A stretch of 39,209 bases of DNA from Candidatus Thiodiazotropha sp. 'RUGA' (GTDB lineage Bacteria; Pseudomonadota; Gammaproteobacteria; Chromatiales; Chromatiaceae). The DNA lies in NCBI GenBank assembly GCA_016842065.1, contig JAEPDS010000034.1, positions 1-39,209 on the forward strand, written 5' to 3'. The translations under genes were made by a program, and so were the position numbers. The notes under the pieces are model-generated. The model worked only from the letters and a program-made list of their open reading frames with translations, did no database searches and had not been told where the DNA came from. Shown piece by piece: positions 10,225 to 27,831 of this stretch. The first letter of the stretch is position 1; each line of letters starts with the position of its first letter.

Positions 10225-10498
10225 TATCGACGCCACTTAAGCTACTGGCAGATTCCCACACGCCGAGAATGGTTTTTTTGTTTATTATCTGATGGTTACG
10301 CTAAATTCGAGCACACTTCATAATTAATTAATATCGACTACTATTTGGTTTATAGCCAGTACGGGTCAAAAGGAGTCGCAGGAGATATAAAAAAAATCCT
10401 GCTTATACATTAAGTTACCTGTATTCCGGCCGCTAACCATAGACTAGAATGTCTATTCTGGTTGTAGCGAGCCACCATCGGACTTATTGATTGCTCCC

Positions 10499-11377
10499 AT
10501 GGAACATTTAGTCGAAACACACCATCTTGTTCGTTTTGCTCGACAAGCGATTGTCGTGCTATTGCTTGTTTTTTGTGAGTTTCTCAATTCTGCCTGGGCC
10601 GATCCCCTGGTCGTTGGCGTTTTTCCCAGACGGGATGCTGCCGTCACAGCAAAATTATTTCGCCCCCTTGCACAACATCTGGAAAAGCAGCTTGATCGAA
10701 AGGTCAGACTGGAACTCTCCCCAACTTTTGACGTTTTTCTGAAGCGCCTGAAAGAGAGGCGCTACGATCTTGTGCATCTCAACCAGTTCGAGTACATCAA
10801 TGCCAATAAAGAGCTGGATTATATTGTCATCGCACAGAATGAAGAGTTTGGTGAGCGGACGATTCGTGGCGCGATATTTGTCAGAAAGGACTCAGGGATC
10901 AGTGATACCAGTCAGTTGAAGGATAAGAAGATCCTCTTCGGTGGTGGACCGAGAGCCATGATGAGTTATATCGTACCCACCTATCTGTTAAGGCAGAGAG
11001 GACTGATGGAAGGCGACTATACAGAGACCTATGCCTCCAACCCCCCAAATGCGGTCTTGGCCACATTCCAAAAACAGGCTGACGCTGGAGGAGCAGGTGA
11101 AGTCGTAGCCCGCTTGCCATTAGTCAAAAAGAAGATCGATGTTAGTCAAATGACAGCACTTGCTGTCAGCGAACCTCTTCCGCACCTACCTTGGGCAGTC
11201 AAACAGGAGATGGATGAAGATCTCAAGGGTAAAATTACTGATTTACTTCTGGGACTTAAAAACAGTGCTGAAGGTAAAATAATTCTTAAGTCTGCACGCC
11301 TAAGTGCGATTAACCCTGCATCGGATGCAGAGTATGACTCACACCGTGTGATTATTGATTTCGTCTATGCCAATTGA
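10499..11377 (+). CDS. PhnD-like periplasmic substrate-binding protein, partner of the GGDEF-EAL gene
   Basis: About 292 residues from ATG 10499; a TTG at 10487 would add four residues and has no better ribosome site. A signal peptide (hydrophobic core IVVLLLVF, cleavage near SAWA-DP) precedes a PhnD/phosphite-phosphonate-type type 2 periplasmic binding fold: VVGVFPRRDAA, LAQHLEKQL, YDLVHLNQFEY, the FVRKDSG strand and the FGGGPRAMMSY ligand loop. No ABC permease or ATPase is nearby. Instead its stop overlaps the start of a membrane GGDEF-EAL protein, so it more likely serves as a periplasmic ligand sensor than as a transport protein. The ligand is unknown. Confidence 0.85.
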   Translation: MEHLVETHHLVRFARQAIVVLLLVFCEFLNSAWADPLVVGVFPRRDAAVTAKLFRPLAQHLEKQLDRKVRLELSPTFDVFLKRLKERRYDLVHLNQFEYINANKELDYIVIAQNEEFGERTIRGAIFVRKDSGISDTSQLKDKKILFGGGPRAMMSYIVPTYLLRQRGLMEGDYTETYASNPPNAVLATFQKQADAGGAGEVVARLPLVKKKIDVSQMTALAVSEPLPHLPWAVKQEMDEDLKGKITDLLLGLKNSAEGKIILKSARLSAINPASDAEYDSHRVIIDFVYAN

Positions 11378-13871
11378 TGTAAACAGAGAAAACTCAAATT
11401 CCTCAACCCCTACATTCAATGGAAGGTTACGTCTCAGGTTTTTGAGTTGGATTAGTATTATCCTGGTAATTACGCTCGGTGGAGCGACATACTATATCTA
11501 CAACACTCAACAGACTCACCTTGAATACAGCCTAAAAAATAAAGCTTATGCTATGGGTGAATTTATTGCGCTGATCAGCCCGGATGCTATTTACAGTTAT
11601 GATGTAACAACCCTGGACAGCTTCGTAGAACAGATCTCGACTGATGTCGATATACAATATGCGCAGATCTTAACCCCTGATAATGTACCAATTACCACTT
11701 ATTTACCTGAAGATATCGACCCAAAAACCATTGCAAGTTGGATATCAGACAATCCAGGCTTTGTTCAATTTGAAAGCAGTCGAGACAGCAGTACGATTGC
11801 TTTGAAATTCCCGATTAATGACGGTGAGATTAACCTTGGCTGGTTGGTTATTGGTCTAAACACAGCCAGGATAGAGTACATCACACAAACCGCAACTATT
11901 TTTCTGATAGAAATTTATACCATCATTTTCCTGATTTTGGGTGCAGTAATTTTTATTGTTTTTAAGATGCAGGTTCTTAATCCTGTAAATGCTTTAACTA
12001 TGGGCGCCACACGCGTGGCCGATGGACGACTCAACCAGGACGTGCCGATCATATCACATGATGAACTCGGCCGATTGGCTCACAGTTTTAATATGATGCA
12101 GCGGGAAATCAAGAACGATAGAGAGATCTTGATTGGTTTCAACAAACAACTGGAAGAGGAAATAGAGTATCGCCATAAAGCTTCAGAAGAGTTAAAAAAG
12201 CTTTCCATGGCGGTTGAGCAAAGCCCTGCATCCGTTGTTATAACCGACACCAAAGGATTGGTCGAGTATGTAAACCCCAAGTTTTCCGAAGTTAGCGGCT
12301 ATTCCGCCAAGGAAGTTATTGGCAATCCGTCAAAGTGTCTTGGCGCAGATGTTAAAGACAGCGCTGTACTGAAAGATATCTGGGGCACCATCGAAAAAGG
12401 TAAGATATGGAAAGGCGAATTTTGCACACAGAGAAAGAATGGGACGGAATATTGGGAGTCTGCAGTTATCGCGCCGATACGGGACAACAACAATATCACC
12501 ACACACTATCTAACTGTTAAGGAGGATATCACCCAGAGAAAGGCCATTGAAGACAAGCTCTTGGAACAGGCAACTCACGACCAACTCACCAAGCTACCCA
12601 ACAGATTTCTTGCCTTTGATCGGCTTGAACAACTGATTCAACATGCAGAAAGAAACAAGACTCATATCGCAGTCATCTATATCGATCTTGACAATTTCAA
12701 GAACGTTAATGATTCATTAGGCCACTCTGTTGGTGACGAATTATTAATTCTGCTTTCCAAGCGCATAAGCGATCAACTAAGAAAACAGGATACTCTGGCC
12801 AGACTGGGTGGCGATGAATTTTTAGCGCTCATCCCAGACTTGAATGACCTGTCGACAGACCTGGAAAAGGTCGTTACCAGACTTCTTTCAACAACTGAGT
12901 CTCCTGTCGAACTGCACAACCATCAGCTAAATATAACTTCCAGCCTTGGCATCGCTGTCTACCCGGAAGACGGAACAACGGTATCCTCCTTGATGAGTAA
13001 TGCTGATATAGCGATGTATGACGCAAAACATGCAGGCAGGAACACCTTCAGATTTTTCACAAAAGAGTTGAACAACAAGATCAGTGAGAAAATAGCACTT
13101 GAGACTGAACTGAGTCATGCACTTGAGTTCAATCAGCTTTACCCTGTATATCAACCAATACTCGATATCTCACGACATGAACTGGTTGGTGCTGAAGTTC
13201 TTCTACGCTGGGATAACCCACAGCTTGGAATAGTGCCGCCATCTGAGTTTATACCAATAGCAGAACAATCCGGGTTAATCCGTCCTATCACAGATTGGCT
13301 GTTTCAGAGAATACTCGAAGATGCCAATACCTGGAACAGCAGACCTGATAACTTCTGGCTGTCAGTAAATGTTCCACCCAACTACTTTTGCGATACATCA
13401 TTCAGTAAAGCGATTACACGTATCAATCAACAAGCCGAAAATGCAGGAATCAGGCTCTGCATCGAAATCACTGAAAACCTCTTATTACAGGGTGATAGCA
13501 ATGTACTTGACACTTTCGAGCACCTAAACAATTTAGGTATTGAAACAGCAATCGATGATTTTGGTACCGGCTATTCATCACTTGCCTACATCAAGAAATT
13601 TCCTCTGAATCATTTGAAAATCGACAGATCCTTTGTTGAAGGTCTACCTTACGATGAGGATGATAGAGCACTGACCGAAATTATTGTTCTGATGAGTAAA
13701 AAATTTGGTATTTCTGTTATTGCCGAAGGCGTTGAAAATGAAGATCAGGCAAACTTCTTACACTCTCTAGATATCAAATATGCACAAGGATTCATATATG
13801 CAAAACCAATGGAATCCATGAGTTTTAACGAATACCTTGTTGAACGCCACAGCACCGAACTTACAACCTGA
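11367..13871 (+). CDS. Membrane HAMP-PAS-GGDEF-EAL c-di-GMP enzyme
   Basis: About 834 residues from ATG 11367, which overlaps the end of the PhnD-like gene by 11 bases (a TTG at 11355 is the alternative). Domains: membrane helix ~20-45, periplasmic sensor ~46-170, second helix ~172-195, HAMP ~195-250, PAS ~280-395, GGDEF ~400-565, EAL ~575-825. The cyclase motif is an intact GGDEF (~481-485) with DLDNFKNVNDSLGH. The EAL half has EVLLR in place of EALLR but keeps the catalytic Glu, DDFGTGYSS (~730), AEGVE and QGF-Y-KP, so both synthase and phosphodiesterase activity are plausible. The tie to the PhnD-like protein suggests periplasmic ligand input into c-di-GMP turnover. Confidence 0.92.
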   Translation: MPIDVNRENSNSSTPTFNGRLRLRFLSWISIILVITLGGATYYIYNTQQTHLEYSLKNKAYAMGEFIALISPDAIYSYDVTTLDSFVEQISTDVDIQYAQILTPDNVPITTYLPEDIDPKTIASWISDNPGFVQFESSRDSSTIALKFPINDGEINLGWLVIGLNTARIEYITQTATIFLIEIYTIIFLILGAVIFIVFKMQVLNPVNALTMGATRVADGRLNQDVPIISHDELGRLAHSFNMMQREIKNDREILIGFNKQLEEEIEYRHKASEELKKLSMAVEQSPASVVITDTKGLVEYVNPKFSEVSGYSAKEVIGNPSKCLGADVKDSAVLKDIWGTIEKGKIWKGEFCTQRKNGTEYWESAVIAPIRDNNNITTHYLTVKEDITQRKAIEDKLLEQATHDQLTKLPNRFLAFDRLEQLIQHAERNKTHIAVIYIDLDNFKNVNDSLGHSVGDELLILLSKRISDQLRKQDTLARLGGDEFLALIPDLNDLSTDLEKVVTRLLSTTESPVELHNHQLNITSSLGIAVYPEDGTTVSSLMSNADIAMYDAKHAGRNTFRFFTKELNNKISEKIALETELSHALEFNQLYPVYQPILDISRHELVGAEVLLRWDNPQLGIVPPSEFIPIAEQSGLIRPITDWLFQRILEDANTWNSRPDNFWLSVNVPPNYFCDTSFSKAITRINQQAENAGIRLCIEITENLLLQGDSNVLDTFEHLNNLGIETAIDDFGTGYSSLAYIKKFPLNHLKIDRSFVEGLPYDEDDRALTEIIVLMSKKFGISVIAEGVENEDQANFLHSLDIKYAQGFIYAKPMESMSFNEYLVERHSTELTT

Positions 13872-13940: not shown

Positions 13941-14696
13941 TTATTCGGGTTGGTAATTCAGTGTATCCACTAGATCAATCATGAATTCCATCGCTTCGTC
14001 GGGCATATTCTCCCACTCATCAAATCCCATAGATTCCATTACACCAGCGCCCTTGTAATTACTTTTCATTGTCAACAGGTGCTGAGACAGGAGATCCCGA
14101 TGTTGTTTCAATTGAGGCCCGACCAACAGGGTATGGTGCATTACATTGATCTGACTTCTGGCCAACACGCTGAGGTTCTGTTTTGTTAGCTGCGAGAGTG
14201 ATTGGTACGCTTCAACAAGGAAAAAACCTATATCTGCCCTATTGTTGATCAATGCTTTGGCAACCAGCGGATAACTACCCATGACCAGCCTGTTTTTACC
14301 GGAGTTGTGCATCTCGGCCGGCTCCAGCATAATATCGCAGATAAGATTAACATCAGGATCTTCTGTCAGAGCGATTACCGTATCCATGCCTAATGATTCT
14401 ATATATTCAACATTACTTGTCTGGTTTACTGCAATTATCGCTTCATCTGAAGTCTGACTCGGCCTAGCCACAGGAACAAAACCTTTTTCTCGAACCAACA
14501 CAGAGGCGTCATATGGATTGGCATAGATTAAATCAATTTGATCGTCCCCTATAGCCTTACGTTGCTGATTAAAGTTATCGTAGAGCTCAAGGTGAATCGG
14601 TAGCTGAAGACTCTTCTGTAACCATGTATTAAAAATATACCATCCACCTATATGATCAGGTGTAAAATCTGGACTTACTGTCATTCTGTAGGGCAT
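13941..14696 (-). CDS. PhnD-like binding-fold protein without signal peptide
   Basis: 251 residues beginning MPYRMTVSPDF, i.e. directly at the first strand of a PhnD-type binding fold. Typical segments are DLIYANPYDASVLVREKGFVPVARP and VMGSYPLVAKALINNRADIGFFL. No signal peptide or membrane helix is seen and the upstream frame offers none, so it is predicted cytoplasmic, unlike nearly all PhnD-family proteins. It is the last gene of the GTPase/globin cluster, 11 bp after the PAS gene, and is convergent with the PhnD-GGDEF-EAL pair (69 bp between stops). A soluble ligand sensor within the signalling complex is an inference. Confidence 0.75.
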   Translation of the reverse strand: MPYRMTVSPDFTPDHIGGWYIFNTWLQKSLQLPIHLELYDNFNQQRKAIGDDQIDLIYANPYDASVLVREKGFVPVARPSQTSDEAIIAVNQTSNVEYIESLGMDTVIALTEDPDVNLICDIMLEPAEMHNSGKNRLVMGSYPLVAKALINNRADIGFFLVEAYQSLSQLTKQNLSVLARSQINVMHHTLLVGPQLKQHRDLLSQHLLTMKSNYKGAGVMESMGFDEWENMPDEAMEFMIDLVDTLNYQPE

Positions 14697-14707
14697 AACC
14701 TGTTCCG

Positions 14708-15181
14708 TTAAAAAAGCGTTGGATAAAGATCAATACACTCTTCTACCTTACGTCGAGCTGGTTTCCGCCTTACTGATGTAAAACCAGTTATTTTTCCTTC
14801 CCTTATATTTGGTATTACCACTGCAAGTACCCAGTAGTAACCACCATCTTTGCGGAGATTTTTGACATAACCATGCCATTTATCACCCTTCTCAATAGCA
14901 TCCCACAGGCCCTTGAAGGCAGCTGATGGCATATCCGGATGTCTTAAGATATAGTGAGGTTGACCAACAAGCTCCTCTTGACTGTAACCTGACATTTCGA
15001 CAAACGACTGGTTTACATGGGTAATAATACCTGCTGCATCTGTTCGAGAGACGATCAACCTACCATCTTGAAATGGGGTTTCTTTATCTGTTACGAGCAC
15101 TTTACGTCGACTGCCATCATTGAAGATAAGGATTCTCTCAATGTAATTGCCATTAATGTCTTCCGGTTCCATATCCTGCAT
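14708..15181 (-). CDS. Free-standing Aer-type PAS protein, probable flavin redox sensor
   Basis: 157 residues from ATG 15181, with AGAGG about 9 bases upstream; a TTG at 15187 is an alternative. A short basic N-terminal region (1-40) is followed by one PAS domain (~41-150) very like the sensor of the aerotaxis receptor Aer: THVNQSFVEMSGYS, then GQPHYILRHPDMP and GGYYWVLA. Residues corresponding to the FAD-binding set of Aer are present (Asn57, Arg80, His81, Asp83, Trp117). There is no HAMP, kinase, GGDEF or methyl-accepting domain, so output must pass to a partner, presumably within this operon. FAD binding is predicted by family, not shown. Confidence 0.85.
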   Translation of the reverse strand: MQDMEPEDINGNYIERILIFNDGSRRKVLVTDKETPFQDGRLIVSRTDAAGIITHVNQSFVEMSGYSQEELVGQPHYILRHPDMPSAAFKGLWDAIEKGDKWHGYVKNLRKDGGYYWVLAVVIPNIREGKITGFTSVRRKPARRKVEECIDLYPTLF

Positions 15182-15295
15182 TGTCAAATGCCTCTTACAA
15201 AAACAGATGCCAGTTGCAGCAACTACTCATAAACTCATTTTTAAGTTGCGGTTGCGCCCATGCCAACGCAATGAAGTCATAGACACAGAGCCATA

Positions 15296-15658
15296 TTAAA
15301 TAACTTTTGATATTGCTTCTGCCGCCCTTTTTATATCCAAAAATACCAAACCAAGCTTTGCTGATGATTTGGCTTGGACTGACACTACAGCCTCTTCACC
15401 TGCATGAGTCATAACAACATAACCCTGACTACCTTTAATAAGTACCATTTCCAAGTTTCCACGTGTCAACTCAGATGCCGTTCTGTCACCCAGCGATAAC
15501 ATTGCCGCGCTCATCGCACCAACACGGTCCTCATCCAGATTGGCTGGCAACAACGAAGCCATGATCAAACCATCTGTCGATATCACCGCAGAGGCTTCAA
15601 TATCTGCTGAACTACCATTTAAATCACTTAGAATCGATGCGAGCATATCTTCACGCAT
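15296..15658 (-). CDS. Roadblock/LC7-domain protein (MglB-like)
   Basis: 120 residues, essentially one roadblock/LC7 domain: an N-terminal helix (EDMLASILSDLNG), the strand pair ASAVISTDGLIMASLLP, a central helix GAMSAAMLSLGDRTA, the strands GNLEMVLIKGSQGYVVMTHAG, and the C-terminal helix. A strong AAGGAG lies 6 bases before the ATG. Roadblock proteins act as partners or GAP-like regulators of prokaryotic small Ras-like GTPases (MglB with MglA, CvnB with CvnD). A GTPase of that superfamily is encoded three genes upstream in the same operon. Confidence 0.9.
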   Translation of the reverse strand: MREDMLASILSDLNGSSADIEASAVISTDGLIMASLLPANLDEDRVGAMSAAMLSLGDRTASELTRGNLEMVLIKGSQGYVVMTHAGEEAVVSVQAKSSAKLGLVFLDIKRAAEAISKVI

Positions 15659-15700
15659 TGTTTACTCCTTTAATAAATACCTTATTACTTGTACCAATAA

Positions 15701-16264
15701 CTACTCTTTGTAAGCACTTGCAAGATTATCGAAAAGTGTGCGGCTCATTCCGGTTATTTTCAAAAACTTTTCCAGCTCTTCAGCCAACCTTGATGACTCA
15801 TAGGACTGCTGCATTACCATCAAAGTAAAACCGAGGATTGCATTAATTGCAGTAATAGACTCTATCAACTTTTCCCGGTCATCTTTGAATATCGTACCCA
15901 GCAACTGTTGCAATCGAGTTGTTACCAGAGCCATAGACCCGGCCATGAACTCCACTGGCAGCTCCGCCTTTACATGCACATGCCCGACACGATACATCGC
16001 TTTTACATAGGCCAAATCGAAAGGACCACTAAAAACAGATTCCATCCACCTGATATGGGTCTCTCTCAAAGCATCAATTCTATTTACAAGAAAGGGTTCT
16101 GCTTTCGGTATATCTAAAAGTACCGTATAGAAACTGTCTGTAACCTCCGCCATATGGGGCCTAACTCTCTCATAAAGCCCCTGCAGTGTATTTTCCATAT
16201 CCTCAGTAACACCAGAAAACTGCTTGGCATATTTCAATAATTGTTCATATTCACGATCATCCAT
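15701..16264 (-). CDS. Free-standing sensor globin (protoglobin/globin-coupled-sensor fold)
   Basis: 187 residues. Residues ~35-150 match the sensor-globin fold of HemAT-type and protoglobin proteins: VTDSFYTVLL, ETHIRWMESVFSGPFD, then YRVGHVHVKAELPVEFMAG. His97 aligns with the proximal haem ligand in the IHLRIGL-type motif of globin-coupled sensors, so haem and hence O2, NO or CO binding is likely. The remaining ~35 residues form a helix (SRLAEELEKFLKITGMSRTL) that may contact a partner. No output domain is present. The gene overlaps the end of the upstream gene by 8 bases, so it is co-translated within the GTPase operon. Confidence 0.85.
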   Translation of the reverse strand: MDDREYEQLLKYAKQFSGVTEDMENTLQGLYERVRPHMAEVTDSFYTVLLDIPKAEPFLVNRIDALRETHIRWMESVFSGPFDLAYVKAMYRVGHVHVKAELPVEFMAGSMALVTTRLQQLLGTIFKDDREKLIESITAINAILGFTLMVMQQSYESSRLAEELEKFLKITGMSRTLFDNLASAYKE

Positions 16265-16919
16265 TAGAAGAACTGCCTCTTATGTTAAACGTTTCGGAAT
16301 AACGCAGTAATAAAACCCATATAAGATCCCTGAAAGAGGGCTGGTTCAGTGTTGGCCTACCTTGGATGATAAGTACAAATCGCTGTTTACCGATGTAGAT
16401 CGGCCAAAATCCAAGCTGACTGTTGCCTGCCGCGTCGGAGAGCGCCCAGGCCTGAACGTCGAGAGAAAGGTTATTTTTTAACAGCAGTCGATGTCGATCA
16501 TAAAGAGAGCCAAGATCGGCACTAACAGCCGACAGCGATTCAGCTGCTTCGTGTGGAAAGTTACTGGTACTAAGATAGAAACCTTGATCGTCAGCAAGTA
16601 GCGCTTTCCCTTCAACCGACACTTTAGCCAATAGATTCGGCAACACATTTTCCAGAGTGCCATCAGGTACAGTCAATTGTGATTCATTGCCGGAAAGCAA
16701 TGCCATATCTTGCAAACGTTTGATCAAATCCATGGTATCCGTTTCTGACTCACCACTCCAATGTGATATTCGCCCAATGTCAGATGACGGCAAACTTTTT
16801 TCACTCATTACCCCGACCAGGATACGTCTAGCTGGTTCATCATGGATGGAACTGACTGCATAATAGGCGCCCGCCGGTGTTGGCTCCAGGTATATTCCGG
16901 CTCTAAGATTGAGATTCAT
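16257..16919 (-). CDS. Roadblock-associated protein with probable winged-helix N-terminal half
   Basis: 220 residues, no named family recognised. Residues ~35-80 (SDIGRISHWSGESETDTMDLIKR...) look like a small winged-helix unit. Residues ~90-210 resemble a roadblock-type fold: helix NVLPNLLAKVSVEG, strands KALLADDQGFYLSTSNFP, helix EAAESLSAVSADLGSLYDRH, and paired strands around GFWPIYIGKQRFVLIIQG. The gene lies 1 bp after the GTPase and overlaps the sensor globin by 8 bp. The arrangement recalls the CvnB/CvnC partners of conservon GTPases in actinobacteria. A role as GTPase partner is inferred from context and fold appearance. Confidence 0.65.
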   Translation of the reverse strand: MNLNLRAGIYLEPTPAGAYYAVSSIHDEPARRILVGVMSEKSLPSSDIGRISHWSGESETDTMDLIKRLQDMALLSGNESQLTVPDGTLENVLPNLLAKVSVEGKALLADDQGFYLSTSNFPHEAAESLSAVSADLGSLYDRHRLLLKNNLSLDVQAWALSDAAGNSQLGFWPIYIGKQRFVLIIQGRPTLNQPSFRDLIWVLLLRYSETFNIRGSSSNG

Positions 16920-16920
16920 A

Positions 16921-17460
16921 CTATTCTGCTATAGTTGGATCTATTGTGTAGAGCAGTGACTGTACTAACATTGACATATCTTCTTTTTCCCTTGCATCGA
17001 CTTCCATTATGGGAAGCACAGGCCAGCCCATTGCGCTTATTTCACGATGATAGTCGTCAATTTCTGGGTGAGATTTTTCATCCATACGGGTTATCCCGAT
17101 AGAGATTGCTGTCGTGTGAATAAAACTCTTGAATGCATCAAGAAAGAAATAGAGATCCTGAAATGGCTCTTTTCTAGAGTTATCGATCAGTAGTACCAAC
17201 CCAAGCCCACCTTGCGTCAGAACTTCCCACATGAAATTAAATCTTTCCTGACCCGGTGTACCATAAAGGTGGACACGTTCTGATCCATTGATACGCATCA
17301 ATCCATAATCCATTGCAACCGTGGTCTGTTGCTTCAGGTCTTTTGTCATATCGGAAGCCAATTCATCCGTTGTGATAGGTACAATATCCGATAGCACACT
17401 GATAGCTGTTGTTTTGCCAGCTCCAACAGGTCCTGTAAAAATTATTTTATGCTCTGACAT
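16921..17460 (-). CDS. Small Ras-like GTPase (COG2229 / CvnD-MglA type)
   Basis: 179 residues, a single GTPase domain. P-loop GPVGAGKTT at 10-18, candidate switch I Thr in KQQTT (~44-48), switch II YGTPGQERF from 66 (Gly in place of the usual Asp of DxxG, as is common in this family), and base-recognition TRMD at 124-127. There is no lipid anchor or membrane segment. GGAGAAGGA stands just before the ATG. Related GTPases work with roadblock proteins in polarity switching (MglA/MglB) and in actinobacterial conservons (CvnD/CvnB). Here it sits amid roadblock, globin and PAS genes, and is likely the switch of the module. Confidence 0.92.
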   Translation of the reverse strand: MSEHKIIFTGPVGAGKTTAISVLSDIVPITTDELASDMTKDLKQQTTVAMDYGLMRINGSERVHLYGTPGQERFNFMWEVLTQGGLGLVLLIDNSRKEPFQDLYFFLDAFKSFIHTTAISIGITRMDEKSHPEIDDYHREISAMGWPVLPIMEVDAREKEDMSMLVQSLLYTIDPTIAE

Positions 17461-17486
17461 TCCTTCTCCAGTACCACAAGAATTAA

Positions 17487-18689
17487 CTACATCGATTGCA
17501 AGCGTGTCAATATTCGCCTCAAAAAACCCGTCTTGGCAAGTTTCTTAGATATGGGATCCTTCTGATTACTATTTTGTTTGTAAGAACTATGAAACTGGAT
17601 CAAATCCATTGCGTGACAGGCGCTGAAGAAAGCATAAATATAGCCAGTCTCAATACGCAGTAACTCAGCAGTTTTTGTCAACGAAATCGGATTTTTACTC
17701 CATAGCGCAGCAATCCTTATAAACTCCGGTATCGCCAACATTCTGGTCAAATTCGGCCATTTACGGATACCGATATTCACATCTTCTACAGTACCGATTG
17801 GTAATCTACCCCTGGAACTCCACAGAGAGACCTTCCATAATAGTGCATCAAGCGGCTGCGGATTGTCATCACAACTCATCATCAGCTGTGACTCACTATA
17901 GTCAGAACTAACCACTTTTACTTGCTCTGCACTCAACTTAAGTAAACAACGGGGTTTCAGTTTTGAATCACTGATTGCATTCAGGCATTGATTTGCATTT
18001 GGTAGTATTGTGATACTCTTTCCATCCTGAAAAACCAGATGCGCAGGTTTTCTGTTTGATCTTGATGTTTCAATCGCACTCTTCAGTATTAACTGTAAGT
18101 TACTTTCATGATTATAAAAGTAAGATTTGTTGGTAATTAAAGGCTGCTTTTCCTCCTTCTTGTTACTCTTTCCACAGGTGCTTTCGATGATCCGTGCCTG
18201 TGATGCTGCAGAAGGTACTGACAAGCGCCGTTTGTTCTCACCCGATGATTGAAATTGCCATTCAGAAGCAATTCCTCGCTGTTTAACTGGTCCCGTTGAC
18301 GGTAACACACGGATAATACGTTCTGATTCAGACTGAGCTTTCTCTATTCTTATACGATCTTGAAGTATCTCACTGCGACAGACATCGATGGTCTCTTTCA
18401 ATAGCTCTGTTCGTAATGGTTTACGTAAAACACGAACACCAACGATTGACATATCATGCACCGATAGAACAATCAGTGGTCGTTGATTGTATTCACTCTG
18501 TTGCCTCTGTAATAAACGATTACCCTCGATACCATCGAGATCCAGTATACAGAGTTTTGCGAGATGGTCCGGAACCACAATACACTGAGTCGACCAATGC
18601 CTTTTGAGGAACATTTCCATCATAGGCTGATCTTTACCATTCAAACCCAACAGGGCTATTCCCATTGGTTCATGATTTGCAAACAGCAT
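17487..18689 (-). CDS. REC-like / C-terminal winged-helix-like regulatory protein
   Basis: 400 residues. The N-terminal ~110 residues look like a response-regulator receiver: CILDLDG holds a candidate acceptor Asp, VLSVHD the Ser/Thr position and RKPL the conserved Lys-Pro, but the N-terminal acidic pair is missing, so phosphorylation is doubtful. A polar low-complexity linker follows (~110-190). The C-terminal ~200 residues contain LLWKVSLWSSRGRLP and RKWPNLTRMLAIPEFIRIAALWS, then a helix-turn-helix-like LTKTAELLRIETGYIYAFF. AAGGATGA precedes the ATG. It is the second gene of the cluster, 3 bp after the TPR-like gene. It could bind a partner or DNA; this is not settled. Confidence 0.65.
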   Translation of the reverse strand: MLFANHEPMGIALLGLNGKDQPMMEMFLKRHWSTQCIVVPDHLAKLCILDLDGIEGNRLLQRQQSEYNQRPLIVLSVHDMSIVGVRVLRKPLRTELLKETIDVCRSEILQDRIRIEKAQSESERIIRVLPSTGPVKQRGIASEWQFQSSGENKRRLSVPSAASQARIIESTCGKSNKKEEKQPLITNKSYFYNHESNLQLILKSAIETSRSNRKPAHLVFQDGKSITILPNANQCLNAISDSKLKPRCLLKLSAEQVKVVSSDYSESQLMMSCDDNPQPLDALLWKVSLWSSRGRLPIGTVEDVNIGIRKWPNLTRMLAIPEFIRIAALWSKNPISLTKTAELLRIETGYIYAFFSACHAMDLIQFHSSYKQNSNQKDPISKKLAKTGFLRRILTRLQSM

Positions 18690-18692
18690 TTA

Positions 18693-19388
18693 TCATCCTT
18701 GAGATTCCAGATATCTGCGGGTCTTCATCCATGCTGTCTCTGCAACCTTGATGCGCTCACCTAATCGATCCTGCATCATTAACAGATCACTAAGAGAGTG
18801 GGTATGCTGGTAAATTTCCAACAAACCGAAATGTAAGCTCATACGCTCTGGTGACGACAAGAGTGCATTTTCGAGTATCTCCTGCGCAACGGCTACCTCA
18901 CCGAAAGTTAACTCTTCCTGCGCCAACTCTAATGGGTCTACACCACGACCTGGTTGCTCATCAGATTTCGGATCCACATCAATCAGGCTCAAACCACCAT
19001 CGAAAAAGTTAGCCAGTACCGAATGTTGACTGATCGGATAGGGGTGGTTTTTTTGAAGACCCTGTTTCAAATTCTTTACAAACAGTTCAAAGAGATCTCT
19101 ATCCAGTATCGTTTTTGCTTTTCTTAGCAGCCCTTTTCGTAACGATTCTCCCTTATCCCCTAAAACCAGGAACAGATCCAGCATGGCTCCGTAAAGTTCC
19201 TCTGTCTGCCTCAATTCCAGATGAAGATAGACTCTTCTTACATGATTCAGTAAATTTTCGGGTTCTCTCGCGGAACGGTAGGCTAAGTGATTTGCCCACA
19301 ACCCAGGCTCAACTTCTTTAGGAGATTTAAGCCCTTGATGAGTGGGTTCATGAAATGTCAGCTGAGATGATTGGTGAGGTGATTTCAA
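18693..19388 (-). CDS. FimV/TPR-like helical protein
   Basis: 231 residues, largely helical. The C-terminal part (DPLELAQEELTFGEVAVAQEILENAL, then LHFGLLEIYQHTHSLSDLL) has the look of the TPR-like repeats in the C-terminal domain of FimV, a polar-hub and type IV pilus protein. No signal peptide or LysM domain is present, so it would be a cytoplasmic version. The start is uncertain: TTG at 19388 is the first usable codon after an in-frame stop and has no clear ribosome site. It is the promoter-proximal gene of the eight-gene minus-strand cluster, and a scaffold role is inferred. Confidence 0.65.
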   Translation of the reverse strand: MKSPHQSSQLTFHEPTHQGLKSPKEVEPGLWANHLAYRSAREPENLLNHVRRVYLHLELRQTEELYGAMLDLFLVLGDKGESLRKGLLRKAKTILDRDLFELFVKNLKQGLQKNHPYPISQHSVLANFFDGGLSLIDVDPKSDEQPGRGVDPLELAQEELTFGEVAVAQEILENALLSSPERMSLHFGLLEIYQHTHSLSDLLMMQDRLGERIKVAETAWMKTRRYLESQG

Positions 19389-21054: not shown

Positions 21055-23394
21055 ATGGCGATGAGTGGAGAGAACGAAAACAACCAACTACTGCACCTCT
21101 TAACTGAGAATCTGCAGCAACTGAAATCATCATGGCCGATCCTACCCTCTGGTATCTGGAATGCCTCTTCTGTGATGACTGCACTAAGGCATTTAAGTGA
21201 GCTGACAAGAAAAAGTCGACAATCAGGATTGATCAGCGTCACTGACATCACTCAAGCGATTGACGATATCATTACCAATGTTTATCAAAACGCCCAACAG
21301 CCTGATCTTGCAGATATTGACAGGCTCAACCAGCTGCTCGAGGATTTGCAGCAGAAGATTCAGGGCATTCAGCAGCAGAGAGTTAGCGCCACTTCCGAAC
21401 ATCAGAATATTGACCTGATCTATCTTCATAATTCCAATCCCAGTGATAACCTGATCATTGAGGCTATTCATAATAATGGATGGCAGGTCCTCAGTATCAG
21501 GACCATTGAAGAGCTGTTTGAGTCAAGCAGCTTCGAACAGACCAAGGTGATCCTTATAGACACTCAGTATCTGGAGAGTGTTGATCAGGTCAATCAAGTA
21601 CTCGATCAGTTATCTGTAGAGAAGAAAAACCGACCGGAACTGATCTTTTTAACCCCGGATTGTGATATAGAGATTCGCCTCCAGGTACTCCGGACAGGTG
21701 TTACTCAATGTTTCACTAAACCTATTAATATCAATGACTTAATCTTAAGTATCAGCAAAGTAGTCGCACCGCCACATGAGCCTAGCAAACGGGTTCTGGT
21801 AGTAGAGGACGACGAGTCCCAAGCGAATTTTGCCACCGTCCTTCTTAATAAAGGCGGCTTAAAGACCCTTTCGATCACCAACCCCCTCAGCGTTCTGGAT
21901 GCGGTTCAACAGTTTCAACCCGACCTGATCCTGATGGATCTCTACATGCCTGGAGCAAATGGCATTGAGCTTACCCAGGTAATACGTGAAAAAGTCGAAT
22001 TGATGCCGATTCCAATCGTCTTTTTGTCAGGCGAAGATGACATGGAGAAAAAGCTTCTTGCACTTCATTCGGGCGCTGATGATTTCTTGACCAAACCGGT
22101 CAGGCCACAGCACTTGTTAGCAACAGTGAAAACCCGGATCAGTAGAGCAGAGGTGGTCTTTAGTGCTGGTAATAAAGGTTATATCGACCACACAACTGGT
22201 TTAGAGAGCCGAAAGATCTTATTGCGCAGTCTCGATTGCAGCACACAAAAAACCCCGAACAACAACGATACCCAGGGTATCATTTCGGTCAGATTTGCTG
22301 ATCCAGATCAACACAGACATAGTGAAATCTACACAGCGCTCCTGCTTGAAACCGTAAAAGTAGTAAACGCGACACTTGATGCCAATGACAAAATTGCCCG
22401 CACATCGATAACCAGCATAGGAATGTTGATCGTTCGTGAAAGCGCAGCGGCTGTTGAACAATTCAGTGATACTATTTATAAAGTGATCAAGGAGACTCTG
22501 AATAAATTAGCAACAGAATCACACTCCGGTAAGTTTGGTATCGGTTTAGCGTTTATAGACAGTTCCCAGGAAGATACCGATAGCTATCTTCTCCAGGCTG
22601 AAACAGCTTCACTCAACGCATATCGCCAACAAATAAGAGGCTATCTTACTCATCAGGATCAAACTGAGGTTTTGGAAACGGATGAAACCTCTCCGGATCA
22701 GTTTCAACAACAACAGTTCAATAATGCCCTTGTAACCAATCTTATCGAATTCAAGGAACAGGCCTTCAGTGCCACCAACCAGAGCGGCAATCAGATCATT
22801 GAATTGAGCCCAAGACCAGCACCGGCAACCGATATTATTCTGATCTCAGACAGCATTTTTCTGACGGCGGAGCAATATCAGCTCAGTGACAAACTTGACC
22901 AGTATATCTGCCAATTTGGCTTGAACTTCTTGGGTAAAACTGCGTTAAGCGGATCAGCAAAAAAGATATTACTACCAATCTCAGCCCAAGCGATTCATAA
23001 CGATACCTTCGTCGACTTCATCAAATCGGAATTACGTCGACTGCAGTTGGTTGGTACCGGGTTGATCATGGAGTTCAATCTACCAGCACTCGCAAAGGAT
23101 CTAAAAAAGGCCCGTTACCTGCTCGGCGAACTGTCATCTTTAGGCATCGATACGCTGCTCGGTAATTTTGCTTGTAACGAAACTGCCTATAAGGTGCTTG
23201 CCTATCTGAATGCTGATGGCGTGCGTCCCCATTTCACACTACTGAAGGCCGATTTTGAAGAGATCAATGATATTGCAACTCAGATTCACTCACTAAACGC
23301 AAAAATCATATTACCGCGAGTTGATAATTTCGACCAAGTCAGTCTGTACTGGTCGGAAGCTGCAGACTATGTTCAATCAAGTTATGACTTTTAG
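21055..23394 (+). CDS. Degenerate REC-REC-GGDEF-EAL protein (probable c-di-GMP effector or scaffold)
   Basis: 779 residues. Residues ~1-115 are helical and may be an HPt-like unit. A first receiver-like domain (~117-240) lacks the acidic pair but keeps LIDTQ, FLTPD and FTKPI. The second receiver (~245-370) is complete: VVEDD (~250-253), acceptor Asp ~295 in LILMDLYMPG, FLSGED, and Lys ~347 in LTKPVRP. A GGDEF-like domain (~377-540) has ARTSITSIGM where LARLGGDEF is expected. An EAL-like domain (~555-779) has ELSPRP for EALLR, LLGNFACN for DDFGTGYS and LPRVDN for AEGVE, and stops right after DYVQSSYDF. Both enzyme activities should be lost. The architecture recalls FimX-type proteins. ATG 21061 is an alternative start. 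Confidence 0.88.
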   Translation: MAMSGENENNQLLHLLTENLQQLKSSWPILPSGIWNASSVMTALRHLSELTRKSRQSGLISVTDITQAIDDIITNVYQNAQQPDLADIDRLNQLLEDLQQKIQGIQQQRVSATSEHQNIDLIYLHNSNPSDNLIIEAIHNNGWQVLSIRTIEELFESSSFEQTKVILIDTQYLESVDQVNQVLDQLSVEKKNRPELIFLTPDCDIEIRLQVLRTGVTQCFTKPININDLILSISKVVAPPHEPSKRVLVVEDDESQANFATVLLNKGGLKTLSITNPLSVLDAVQQFQPDLILMDLYMPGANGIELTQVIREKVELMPIPIVFLSGEDDMEKKLLALHSGADDFLTKPVRPQHLLATVKTRISRAEVVFSAGNKGYIDHTTGLESRKILLRSLDCSTQKTPNNNDTQGIISVRFADPDQHRHSEIYTALLLETVKVVNATLDANDKIARTSITSIGMLIVRESAAAVEQFSDTIYKVIKETLNKLATESHSGKFGIGLAFIDSSQEDTDSYLLQAETASLNAYRQQIRGYLTHQDQTEVLETDETSPDQFQQQQFNNALVTNLIEFKEQAFSATNQSGNQIIELSPRPAPATDIILISDSIFLTAEQYQLSDKLDQYICQFGLNFLGKTALSGSAKKILLPISAQAIHNDTFVDFIKSELRRLQLVGTGLIMEFNLPALAKDLKKARYLLGELSSLGIDTLLGNFACNETAYKVLAYLNADGVRPHFTLLKADFEEINDIATQIHSLNAKIILPRVDNFDQVSLYWSEAADYVQSSYDF

Positions 23395-26354: not shown

Positions 26355-27831
26355 TTAGCCTACTGTGAACTGTCCCATCATACCCATATCTTCGTGTTCG
26401 AGAATATGGCAATGGTACATATAGGGATAGTCATCGGTGGCAGGATAGTCAAAGCGCACAATAAATTCTGCCCAATCGTCATCATCGACAACGATAATAT
26501 CTTTCCAGCCTTGATGGGCTGGTGGAGTAGCTCTGCCCTCCATTTGTTCGACAAGAAACGAGCAGCCGTGAACATGAAAAGGGTGTGCGCCCTGATCCGA
26601 AATGACACGCCACCGTTCCCAGACGCTCCGTTGAATGCGCTCGTTAATGACCTTCATATTCATTGATTTCCCATTAATCGTCATACTCATACCGGCATGA
26701 TGACCATCTTCCCCGCCATTCATTTCAAGTATGAACTCACGAGTTATCGCGATTTCACTCTCTTCTGGTCTTACGATTGTGTTGAGTTTTTGCGGTATGG
26801 GCGCGGTATGGCCATCCAAGCTGTGATCGACAATCAGGGTCAGTGATGGATTGGGTAACGGTGGGTTGAATAGGTTGAATACTCTTAGAATCGTATCGAC
26901 AACGCCTTCGCCTTCGTACTCATCTTCAAATATGGTTAACAGTTCGGCCGAATCGGTTTCGGTCATATCAATAATTATTTCGCAGCGCTCTCCTGGAGCC
27001 ATTTCCATCGTTGTTAATGGTACAGGCTTCTCAAGCAATCCACCATCGGTTGCTATCTTATGAAAAGTTCGATGGTCAGAAAACTGAATCACATAGAAAC
27101 GTGCGTTTGCACCATTTAACAGTCTAAGGCGAACTTTTCCAGCTGGCACGATTGTCGTGGGTGCAATCGCACCATTGATCACAACCACCTCGCCCAGCCA
27201 GCCGTCTTCGTGTGCATTATTAAGTGAATAAACAAGCTGACCATGGGCATCAAATGTTCGGTCCTGAATGGATTGGCAGATCATCCAGTCCATAGAGGTT
27301 AGGTAAATCTAGCGAGTCTGAATGATCATCATCAATTATGATCATACCGGCAAGTCCACGATAGACTTGCTCACCAGTTTTCCCATGAGTGTGTGAGTGA
27401 TACCAGCAGGTCGCAGCAGGCTGCCTGATAGACAATGTGGGCTGCCACTTCTCACCTGCTCCTATGACTGATTGAGGTCCGCCATCCACCTCACCAGGAA
27501 CGTGCAGACCATGGCCATGCACAGCCACTCCTTCATTTAAACTATTCTGGTAGTGCAGTGTCAGTTCAGTACCTTGTCGAGTGCGAATCGTTGGCCCAAG
27601 ATAATCCTGGCTAAAACCCAGTGTCGATGTGCCGATGTTCGGATTGAATGACCACATACCGTGCTGAATTTTCAGTTCAACCGGCTCACCATCTGTGCCG
27701 TCAATAAGCGTAGGTATGGGTAATTTGGTTACTGTGGTTTTAGCCCAGATGGTTGGATGAAATCTTGCACTAATAAAAGCCGCACAACCGATCAGAAACC
27801 GTCGTCGTGAAATACGATTCAACACTTTCAT
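26355..27831 (-). pseudogene. Tat-exported multicopper oxidase split by a one-base frameshift
   Basis: Two minus-strand frames together form one CueO/FtsP-like multicopper oxidase. Part 1 (27831-27250) has a Tat signal (SRRRFLIG, residues 8-15), the copper motif HGHGLH and the motif WYHSHTHG, then runs into a stop after GLDDLPIHSGPNI. Part 2 (from about 27270 to 26355) continues with QDRTFDAHGQ and carries HPFHVHG and the type 1 site YHCHILEHEDMGMM. Removing one C of the CC read at 27270-27271 restores DDLPIIQDRTFDAHG and gives a single ~491-residue protein; total length 1477 is exactly one base over a multiple of three. All four copper motifs are intact. Either a recent inactivation or a sequencing/assembly error. 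Confidence 0.85.

What the first reader, a model, noticed from the sequence alone, without database searches (positions are those of the whole stretch)
13941..19388. Eight-gene small-GTPase module with a sensor globin and an Aer-type PAS protein
One minus-strand cluster, most gaps under 45 bp, combines a COG2229-type GTPase, a roadblock/LC7 protein, a second roadblock-like protein, a REC-like protein, a FimV/TPR-like protein and three separate input-type proteins: sensor globin, flavin-type PAS and PhnD-like binding fold. GTPase plus roadblock pairs are known in MglA/MglB polarity control and in actinobacterial conservons (CvnB/CvnC/CvnD). A version in which haem and flavin sensors are separate proteins feeding a GTPase switch is, as far as I know, not described. 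I infer a redox/oxygen-controlled GTPase switch with a cytoplasmic scaffold.
Basis: partly seen in the sequence, partly recalled or inferred. Interest (0 to 1): 0.85.

Follow-up and report, generated by a model that had tools for sequence, protein, structure and literature searches.

The report
Plug-in sensors on a bacterial GTPase switch
This is a widespread but little-studied bacterial Ras-like GTPase operon, related to the switch that sets front and back in moving bacteria, beside which genes for separate oxygen-, redox- and ligand-sensing proteins come and go like interchangeable parts.

Summary
In detail: eight minus-strand genes at 13941-19388 encode a TPR-like protein, a receiver-domain protein, an MglA-type GTPase, two roadblock proteins, a stand-alone sensor globin, an Aer-type PAS protein and a PhnD-like protein without an evident leader. 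The neighbourhood is conserved. In 61 named, mostly beta/gammaproteobacterial loci with full flanks: TPR 56, REC 61, second roadblock 57, roadblock 56; PAS 37, PhnD 39, globin 6, CZB 3. The core is not new: it is the Group 3 MglA system of Wuichet and Sogaard-Andersen 2014. The single-domain sensors beside it are not mentioned in the two papers I checked: PAS always with PhnD (52 of 52 loci), globin and CZB optional. In 11 loci the next gene encodes a FimV/HubP-like polar landmark. My reading: an MglA-like polarity switch, probably acting on FimV and type IV pili, tuned by diffusible sensors. The core assignment is firm; signal flow from sensors to GTPase and the pilus output are inferred. The window genome has two such GTPases but one copy of each roadblock, both in this operon. 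New variant of a known kind.

The parts
18693..19388 (-). g8, first gene of the operon: 231-aa TPR-like protein (candidate effector/scaffold)
   Evidence: ORF; TPR_16 only E=0.071; its family found in 56 of 61 named full-flank loci
17487..18689 (-). g7: receiver-like N-domain (D50, S76, K90), middle alpha/beta domain, C-terminal helical domain, disordered linker 373-387 and a terminal helix 389-399
   Evidence: AlphaFold model mean pLDDT 82.3; Foldseek receivers, best E=3.3e-4; D50 in 45 of 47, K90 in 46 of 47; terminal motif in 73 of 111
16921..17460 (-). g6: 179-aa MglA-type small GTPase with the Group 3 signature (G5 DAR, G4 mostly without Lys)
   Evidence: solved relatives include MglA 3t12 E=1.4e-6 among Rab/Ras; a relative at E<=1e-20 in 59 of 323 class genomes
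16257..16919 (-). g5: second roadblock protein, N-terminal extension plus roadblock fold
   Evidence: AlphaFold mean pLDDT 90.2; Foldseek roadblock/MglB/Ragulator; only match of its profile in the genome
15701..16264 (-). g4: 187-aa single-domain sensor globin with a conserved C-terminal tail; starts 8 bp inside g5
   Evidence: PF11563 E=2e-23; solved relatives 2w31 5.9e-25, 5ohe 9.2e-22, HemAT 1or4 9.2e-9; H97 and Y46 in 14 of 14
15296..15658 (-). g3: 120-aa roadblock/LC7 (MglB-like) protein
   Evidence: PF03259 E=1.2e-13; the only Robl_LC7 match at E<=0.001 in the genome
14708..15187 (-). g2: 159-aa stand-alone Aer-type PAS protein (probable FAD binder)
   Evidence: profile best solved hits: aerotaxis receptor 8dik 1.6e-45 and 31cj 1.4e-44, then 3ewk 3.8e-33
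13941..14696 (-). g1: 251-aa PhnD-like substrate-binding fold without an evident signal peptide (probable cytoplasmic ligand sensor)
   Evidence: PF12974 E=2.2e-32, matched from residue 5; no start codon further upstream in the window frame; no leader visible in the alignment of 22 (rows chosen by length); no signal-peptide predictor was run

Best explanation
It is a Group 3 MglA-type operon, probably a polarity switch, of a Candidatus Thiodiazotropha-like sulfur-oxidising symbiont. Core: the GTPase cycles between GDP and GTP; the two roadblock proteins act as MglB/MglC-like regulators; the receiver protein is a RomR-like adaptor whose conserved C-terminal helix docks a partner; the TPR protein is an SgmX-like effector. 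GTP-bound GTPase, at a pole marked by FimV/HubP, stimulates a polar machine, most likely type IV pili. Add-on: separate cytosolic sensors bind the core and shift the GTPase balance: PAS (flavin redox state) together with the PhnD-like protein (unknown ligand), and optionally globin (O2 or a related gas) or a CZB protein. Shown: gene content, order, folds, conserved residues, co-occurrence, FimV adjacency in some relatives. Inferred: physical contact of sensors with the core, ligands, direction of signalling, and the pilus output.
For: Core: G5 DAR arginine 21 of 21, Lys at the G4 position in only 4 of 21, as Group 3 is described (PMC4316618: section 18 in full and term passages); receiver protein and two roadblocks next door. 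Sensors belong to the operon: of 113 related genomes 8 have a strong globin match (E<=1e-50) and all 8 lie inside this operon; PAS in 52 of 116 loci, always with PhnD. Polar output: a FimV/HubP-like gene is next downstream on the same strand in 11 loci, overlapping or within 32 bp in 8 of them; 10 of these 11 copies pass the FimV_Cterm cut-off, L094 falls below it. PilM at E<=1e-30 in 55 of 59 GTPase-positive against 194 of 264 GTPase-negative class genomes, p=5.5e-4. The window genome has PilM, three PilT-family genes over cut-off and a long FimV. In print: an orphan mglB allele in Snodgrassella, whose mglA is Group 3, changes colony spreading and gut competition (PMC11112851, sections 18, 19); in Myxococcus MglA-GTP acts on pili through the TPR protein SgmX (PMC7519303, abstract) and the RomR C-terminal helix binds MglC (PMC12719032, abstract).
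Against: No interaction, GTPase activity, ligand or phenotype was tested. FimV adjacency is confined to one clade of the operon tree (8 Thiotrichales and 3 Burkholderiales loci), is absent from the window, and only 1 of 7 tested copies passes the FimV_core cut-off. The PilM threshold was my choice, the counts were transcribed by hand, and the test is not corrected for phylogeny or genome size; 4 GTPase-positive genomes lack a strong PilM. The Snodgrassella allele lies in an mglB far from the operon. The g7 C-domain was modelled in 2014 as DNA-binding, which favours a transcriptional output. In one relative (L037) an MCP, a CheV-like protein and a GGDEF-EAL protein precede the operon on the same strand, which would also fit a chemosensory or c-di-GMP output. 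No fusion of a sensor to a core protein was noticed, but I did not search for one systematically.
Confidence: 0.53

Rival explanations
1. Transcriptional output: g7 is a response-regulator-like transcription factor with a C-terminal winged helix, and the GTPase/roadblock/sensor set controls its DNA binding.
For: PMC4316618 section 18 reports Phyre2 matches to a receiver and a winged helix and suggests transcription control; my model has a C-terminal helical domain with a strand at 364-367.
Against: In the 50 Foldseek rows listed (of 1193 at E<=10) most hits are receivers and none is a lone DNA-binding domain; full-length regulators appear (1rnl, 5ed4, 8uvx) but with alignments of 118-146 columns, about one receiver. 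The protein ends in a conserved helix after a disordered linker, which looks like a docking or membrane-anchoring element; FimV adjacency points to the pole.
Confidence: 0.2
2. Co-expression only: PAS, PhnD and globin are needed under the same conditions as the GTPase but act elsewhere.
For: The 108-bp gap before PAS leaves room for a separate promoter.
Against: PAS and PhnD lie beside the core in named loci of Methylococcales, Chromatiales, Thiotrichales, Cellvibrionales and Burkholderiales; no globin match at E<=1e-50 lies outside the operon in the 113 genomes (two weak matches, E=6.4e-9 and 9.4e-6, lie in genomes without the GTPase).
Confidence: 0.13
3. Second-messenger or chemosensory output: the module works with a neighbouring periplasmic PhnD-like protein plus HAMP-PAS-GGDEF-EAL protein (c-di-GMP) or with MCP/CheV, rather than directly on a polar machine.
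For: The PhnD-like and GGDEF-EAL pair flanks the operon in the window, L032 and L033, and recurs upstream of the CZB-type operon of L037 together with an MCP (MCPsignal 1.7e-42) and a CheW-receiver protein. A further receiver-EAL gene lies at 21055-23394.
Against: The pair is in 4 of the 36 window-and-relative loci clustered; members of the wider GGDEF/EAL cluster are in 9 of 36, within up to 17 kb. The named loci were not clustered for it.
Confidence: 0.1

Closest known systems
Group 3 MglA systems (Wuichet and Sogaard-Andersen 2014, PMC4316618)
   Same: Beta/gammaproteobacterial MglA-family GTPase with DAR G5 motif, receiver-like protein and one or two MglB homologues in one neighbourhood
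   Different: The paper's main text has no occurrence of TPR, tetratricopeptide, PAS domain, globin, phosphonate or FimV; its supplement was not seen
Myxococcus xanthus polarity module (MglA, MglB, MglC, RomR/RomX, SgmX)
   Same: Same set of part types: GTPase, two roadblocks, receiver protein, TPR effector
   Different: The GTPase differs at G3 (Gly67); the paper of 2014 says mglA is not near its partners' genes there; input comes from the Frz chemosensory system, not from diffusible sensor domains
Actinobacterial conservons (CvnA-D)
   Same: GTPase plus roadblock operon with sensory input; same unusual DAR G5 motif
   Different: Conservons have a histidine kinase (CvnA) and CvnC; no kinase domain was found here
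Aer aerotaxis receptor and globin-coupled sensors (HemAT, AfGcHK)
   Same: Same PAS and globin domain families with key residues kept
   Different: Here the sensor domains are separate small proteins with no transmitter domain

Membership tests
Group 3 MglA system | GTPase G5 motif DAR with conserved Arg, G4 lacking Lys | tested here: met
   R157 in 21 of 21 (DAR exactly in 18), Lys at G4 in 4 of 21; window itself TRMD and VDAR
Group 3 MglA system | One or two MglB (roadblock) genes coupled | tested here: met
   g3 by Pfam, g5 by fold
Group 3 MglA system | Adjacent protein with receiver N-domain | tested here: met
Group 3 MglA system | Same adjacent protein with C-terminal winged helix | tested here: inconclusive
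   helical C-domain in the model, no lone winged-helix hit among the 50 rows listed
Group 3 MglA system | Almost exclusively in beta/gammaproteobacteria | tested here: met
   74 of 80 named loci carry NCBI class Gamma- or Betaproteobacteria, 1 Hydrogenophilia, 5 no class; only the best 80 of 588 were kept, so this is a weak test
Group 3 MglA system | GTP binding and hydrolysis stimulated by MglB | not testable with these tools
   needs purified proteins
Group 1 MglA (Myxococcus type) | Thr (MglA Thr78) in place of the conserved residue of G3 | tested here: not met
   G3 is GTPGQ, Gly67 in 21 of 21; Thr78 from the start of the abstract of PMC3000849 in a search listing; that residue 67 is the equivalent position is my reading
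Actinobacterial conservon | CvnA histidine kinase and CvnC in the operon | tested here: not met
   no kinase domain in the eight genes; CvnC was not searched with a model of its own
Globin-coupled sensor | Haem ligand residues of the sensor globin | tested here: met
   H97 and Y46 in 14 of 14; assignment as proximal His and distal Tyr is recalled
Globin-coupled sensor | C-terminal transmitter fused to the globin | tested here: not met
   187-aa protein, globin plus short tail
Aer-type aerotaxis receptor | FAD-type PAS domain | tested here: met
   Aer 8dik E=1.6e-45; FAD binding itself not tested
Aer-type aerotaxis receptor | HAMP and methyl-accepting signalling domain | tested here: not met
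   159-aa protein

The most novel reading that the evidence does not exclude
A kinase-free sensory system: diffusible one-domain sensors (FAD-PAS with a PhnD-like ligand binder, haem globin, CZB, and perhaps an unnamed cysteine-containing domain) plug in and out of a conserved Ras-like GTPase/roadblock core and steer cell polarity and type IV pili directly, a taxis pathway parallel to Che and Pil-Chp. In the window genome two GTPases with different sensors would share one roadblock pair, so signals would be integrated at the roadblocks.
Probability: 0.35. Interest if true: 0.85.

Novelty: new variant of a known kind. Interest (0 to 1): 0.62.

Why it matters
For most bacterial Ras-like switches outside a few models the inputs and outputs are unknown (my recall, in line with the papers cited). 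This operon offers candidates for both: inputs with recognisable domain families (sensor globin, Aer-type PAS, CZB, PhnD-type binder) and an output (FimV-marked pole, type IV pili). A relative of the GTPase is in 59 of 323 sampled genomes of the class at E<=1e-20, 48 of them at E<=1e-40, and in cultured methanotrophs such as Methylotuvimicrobium buryatense 5G (L083) and Methylobacter marinus A45 (L072, with globin). It makes the question of how a bacterial small GTPase is coupled to the environment directly testable. For lucinid symbionts it suggests how cells might choose micro-oxic sites or attach to host surfaces.

Tried and rejected
Rejected or corrected: (a) The module as a fixed eight-gene set: globin is absent from most relatives. 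(b) A conserved micro-protein made of the globin tail in globin-less relatives: it was found only in L034, L035 and L064 and shows 14 differences in non-synonymous against 2 in synonymous codons between L034 and L035, so it looks like a decaying remnant. (c) A second FimV in the window genome: the second TIGR03504 match is the tail of a TatC-like protein (TatC named by reading the sequence), which also warns that this short model can match other proteins. (d) My note that an extra gene in L047 is 'V4R-like' came from memory; Pfam gave no family for L047 or L071. (e) Gene fusions of sensors with core proteins: none noticed; over-long ORFs were taken for start-codon over-extension, without a systematic test. 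(f) Promoter-like sites were at chance level (12 found, 15.4 expected) and one terminator-like site, on the plus strand, was found against 4.2 expected; repeats gave nothing. (g) FimV adjacency as many independent events: the operon tree places its carriers in one 14-row clade, so it is probably one origin plus transfer. (i) Literature: nothing in the listings (20 of 106 papers listed; 15 of 23; 20 of 39; 12 of 32; 10 of 94; 1 of 1; 10 of 28,132; 8 of 83) describes a globin, PAS or CZB protein with an MglA-type GTPase operon; I saw titles and abstract starts only, and most subscription papers are not in that library.

Limits: the 80 named loci are the best 80 of 588 confirmed, so they lean to close relatives. 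Loci with short flanks were dropped for the full-flank counts (26 of 116). In the 59 GTPase-positive class genomes 11 have only matches between 1e-20 and 1e-40, which may be other MglA groups.


Full report
WHAT IS THERE. The eight ORFs lie at the stated coordinates on the minus strand, in transcription order TPR-like g8, REC-like g7, GTPase g6, second roadblock g5, globin g4, roadblock g3, PAS g2, PhnD-like g1. Gaps are 3, 26, 1, -8, 42, 108, 11 bp. Pfam firmly identifies PhnD-like, PAS, roadblock and protoglobin. The GTPase hits P-loop families weakly and, as a profile, solved Rab, Ras and MglA structures (3t12 E=1.4e-6). Two weak calls were resolved with AlphaFold models built from natural alignments: g5 (mean pLDDT 90.2) has a roadblock fold nearest to roadblock, MglB and Ragulator chains; g7 (82.3) has a receiver domain, a middle alpha/beta domain, a helical C-domain, a disordered linker and a terminal helix. 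The TPR label of g8 rests on E=0.07 only.

WHERE IT IS. One related contig (G008:C1, 400745 bases) has the same length as the record titled 'gamma proteobacterium symbiont of Stewartia floridana', so the genus is most likely Candidatus Thiodiazotropha, sulfur-oxidising lucinid symbionts (the genus name is from memory).

CONSERVATION. Of 113 related genomes 28 have a GTPase relative at E<=1e-5. Of 323 genomes drawn from the class 59 have one at E<=1e-20 and 48 at E<=1e-40. I read the surroundings of 36 loci from the window and relatives and of 80 named loci. With full flanks (61 named, 29 relative loci) the named set has TPR 56, REC 61, second roadblock 57, roadblock 56, PAS 37, PhnD 39, globin 6, CZB 3; the relative set TPR 20, REC 28, second roadblock 20, roadblock 24, PAS 7, PhnD 7, globin 8, CZB 13. 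So the core is five genes and the sensors are add-ons. PAS occurs in 52 of 116 loci and always with PhnD; PhnD occurs without PAS in 2 (L117, L136). On a tree of 92 concatenated cores (quick method; loci with at least 3.5 kb downstream counted) the fewest changes are 8 for globin, 5 for CZB, 10 for PAS and 10 for PhnD, so the sensors were gained or lost repeatedly. The globin has two slots: between the roadblocks (12 of 15 loci, the window included) or between roadblock and PAS (3 of 15: L072, L074, L110). In the 113 relatives strong globin matches (E<=1e-50) occur in 8 genomes and all 8 are inside this operon; two weak matches (6.4e-9, 9.4e-6) lie in genomes without the GTPase. Three sister loci carry a decaying remnant of the globin's C-terminus in the same place, evidence of loss.

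OTHER SENSORS. A second operon type, at another place in the genus, between a DnaX-like gene and succinate-dehydrogenase-like genes, has a stand-alone CZB protein (PF13682, E=1.3e-11 and 5.5e-11 in the two scanned) in place of PAS-PhnD. L068 and L081 carry an extra PhnD-like protein between the roadblocks (L081 E=2.7e-25), and L068, L070, L071 and L081 an unnamed cysteine-containing protein there (the one scanned of these four, L071, matches no Pfam family). The window genome carries a reduced second locus, REC-GTPase-CZB (L060), yet holds one Robl_LC7 match, one g5-type match and two GTPases. The second GTPase would have to share the window's roadblocks or do without; this is inference.

CONSERVED RESIDUES. 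Globin H97 and Y46 are invariant in 14 of 14 and the listed solved relatives are mostly globin-coupled sensor globins (one, 7o0i, is a stressosome RsbR-type protein whose globin, as I recall, lacks haem). PAS is closest to solved Aer PAS domains (8dik 1.6e-45, 31cj 1.4e-44) and to 3ewk. R82 in 20, D85 in 17, H83, W95, W104, N110 in 21 of 21; their match to FAD-contact residues of Aer is from memory. The PhnD-like protein begins its fold at once. The receiver keeps D50 in 45, K90 in 46, S76 in 39 of 47, but the acidic pair after strand 1 is G15 with D or E at 17 in 35 of 47 (window: Asn), so phosphorylation is doubtful.

OUTPUT. In 11 loci (8 Thiotrichales, 3 Burkholderiales) a FimV/HubP-like protein is encoded next downstream on the same strand, overlapping or within 32 bp in 8 and 129-250 bp away in 3. 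In the genome search 10 of these 11 copies pass the FimV_Cterm cut-off and L094 (27.3 bits against 30.65) does not (matched by contig coordinates); of seven scanned as proteins all seven pass FimV_Cterm and one (L113) passes FimV_core. Eight of the 11 genomes also have a FimV_Cterm match in a longer frame of 796-1200 codons elsewhere, so the operon copy is usually a second, short FimV. The carriers fall in one 14-row clade of the operon tree. PilM at E<=1e-30 is in 55 of 59 GTPase-positive and 194 of 264 negative genomes (p=5.5e-4; hand-transcribed, uncorrected for kinship and genome size; at the tool's own E<=0.001 319 of 323 match, because the family's relatives ring too). The window genome has PilM, three PilT-family genes over cut-off and one long FimV. 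In L037, a relative, the CZB-type operon is preceded on the same strand by a periplasmic-type PhnD-like protein, a PAS-GGDEF-EAL protein, an MCP and a CheW-receiver (CheV-like) protein, the last two 8 and 51 bp from their neighbours; the window has the PhnD-like plus GGDEF-EAL pair on its other side. This points to surface or chemosensory behaviour but leaves open which output is direct.

MECHANISM. The part list equals that of the Myxococcus polarity module: GTPase (MglA), two roadblocks (MglB, MglC), receiver protein (RomR), TPR effector (SgmX). SgmX couples MglA-GTP to pili (PMC7519303, abstract). The RomR C-terminal helix binds MglC (PMC12719032, abstract); g7 proteins likewise end in a short conserved segment (73 of 111 fit a strict motif; its hydrophobic moment is not exceptional beside that of other core proteins), a helix in the model. 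In Snodgrassella, whose mglA is Group 3, an orphan mglB-3 allele changes colony spreading and host competition (PMC11112851, sections 18, 19). I therefore read the operon as a polarity switch with sensors in trans. Contacts and direction of signalling are not shown.

COMPARISON. The core meets the Group 3 MglA description (PMC4316618: section 18 in full, other passages by term). That paper's main text has no occurrence of globin, PAS domain, phosphonate, tetratricopeptide or FimV, nor does PMC11112851. Listings of my library searches (capped lists, titles and abstract starts) showed no description of the sensor add-ons. It is not a conservon by content (no kinase domain) and not Group 1 MglA (Gly67 in G3, 21 of 21).

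VERDICT. Real, conserved, biologically interesting; the core is known, the trans sensors and the FimV link are the new part. New variant of a known kind.

Noticed in passing
L034 8613-8756, and L035 and L064 between the roadblock genes: Globin-less sister loci keep a 44-47-codon open frame encoding only the globin's C-terminal tail, with the same 8-bp overlap (checked in L035); it looks to be decaying (14 non-synonymous, 2 synonymous codon differences between L034 and L035).
   Followed up: yes
window genome G000:C40:23094-23621 (L060 6637-8773): Second, reduced locus REC-GTPase-CZB without roadblocks; the genome's only roadblock matches are in the window operon.
   Followed up: partly
window 10487-13871; L037 7768-11243: A PhnD-like protein (PF12974 E=2.4e-51) and a HAMP-PAS-GGDEF-EAL protein converge on the operon; the same pair is beside it in L032 and L033 and upstream of the operon in L037.
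   Followed up: partly
L037 4651-7271: An MCP and a CheW-receiver (CheV-like) gene stand directly upstream of the CZB-type GTPase operon on the same strand.
   Followed up: partly
window 26355-27831: A multicopper oxidase appears split over two overlapping minus-strand ORFs (Cu-oxidase_3 in 27250-27831, Cu-oxidase_2 in 26355-27293), possibly a frameshift or assembly error.
   Followed up: no
L050 7843-10175: A variant GTPase locus is followed by an ABC-ATPase fused to a dual-specificity phosphatase domain and a small protein, another possible GTPase partner set.
   Followed up: no
L070, L071, L068, L081, L047: Unnamed 140-190-aa cysteine-containing proteins next to the roadblock genes; the two scanned (L071, L047) match no Pfam family; candidate further sensor.
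   Followed up: partly
C terminus of g7, window 17487-17522 (-): Conserved terminal helix of the [G/S]LFxRILxxL type after a disordered linker, candidate docking or membrane-targeting element.
   Followed up: partly
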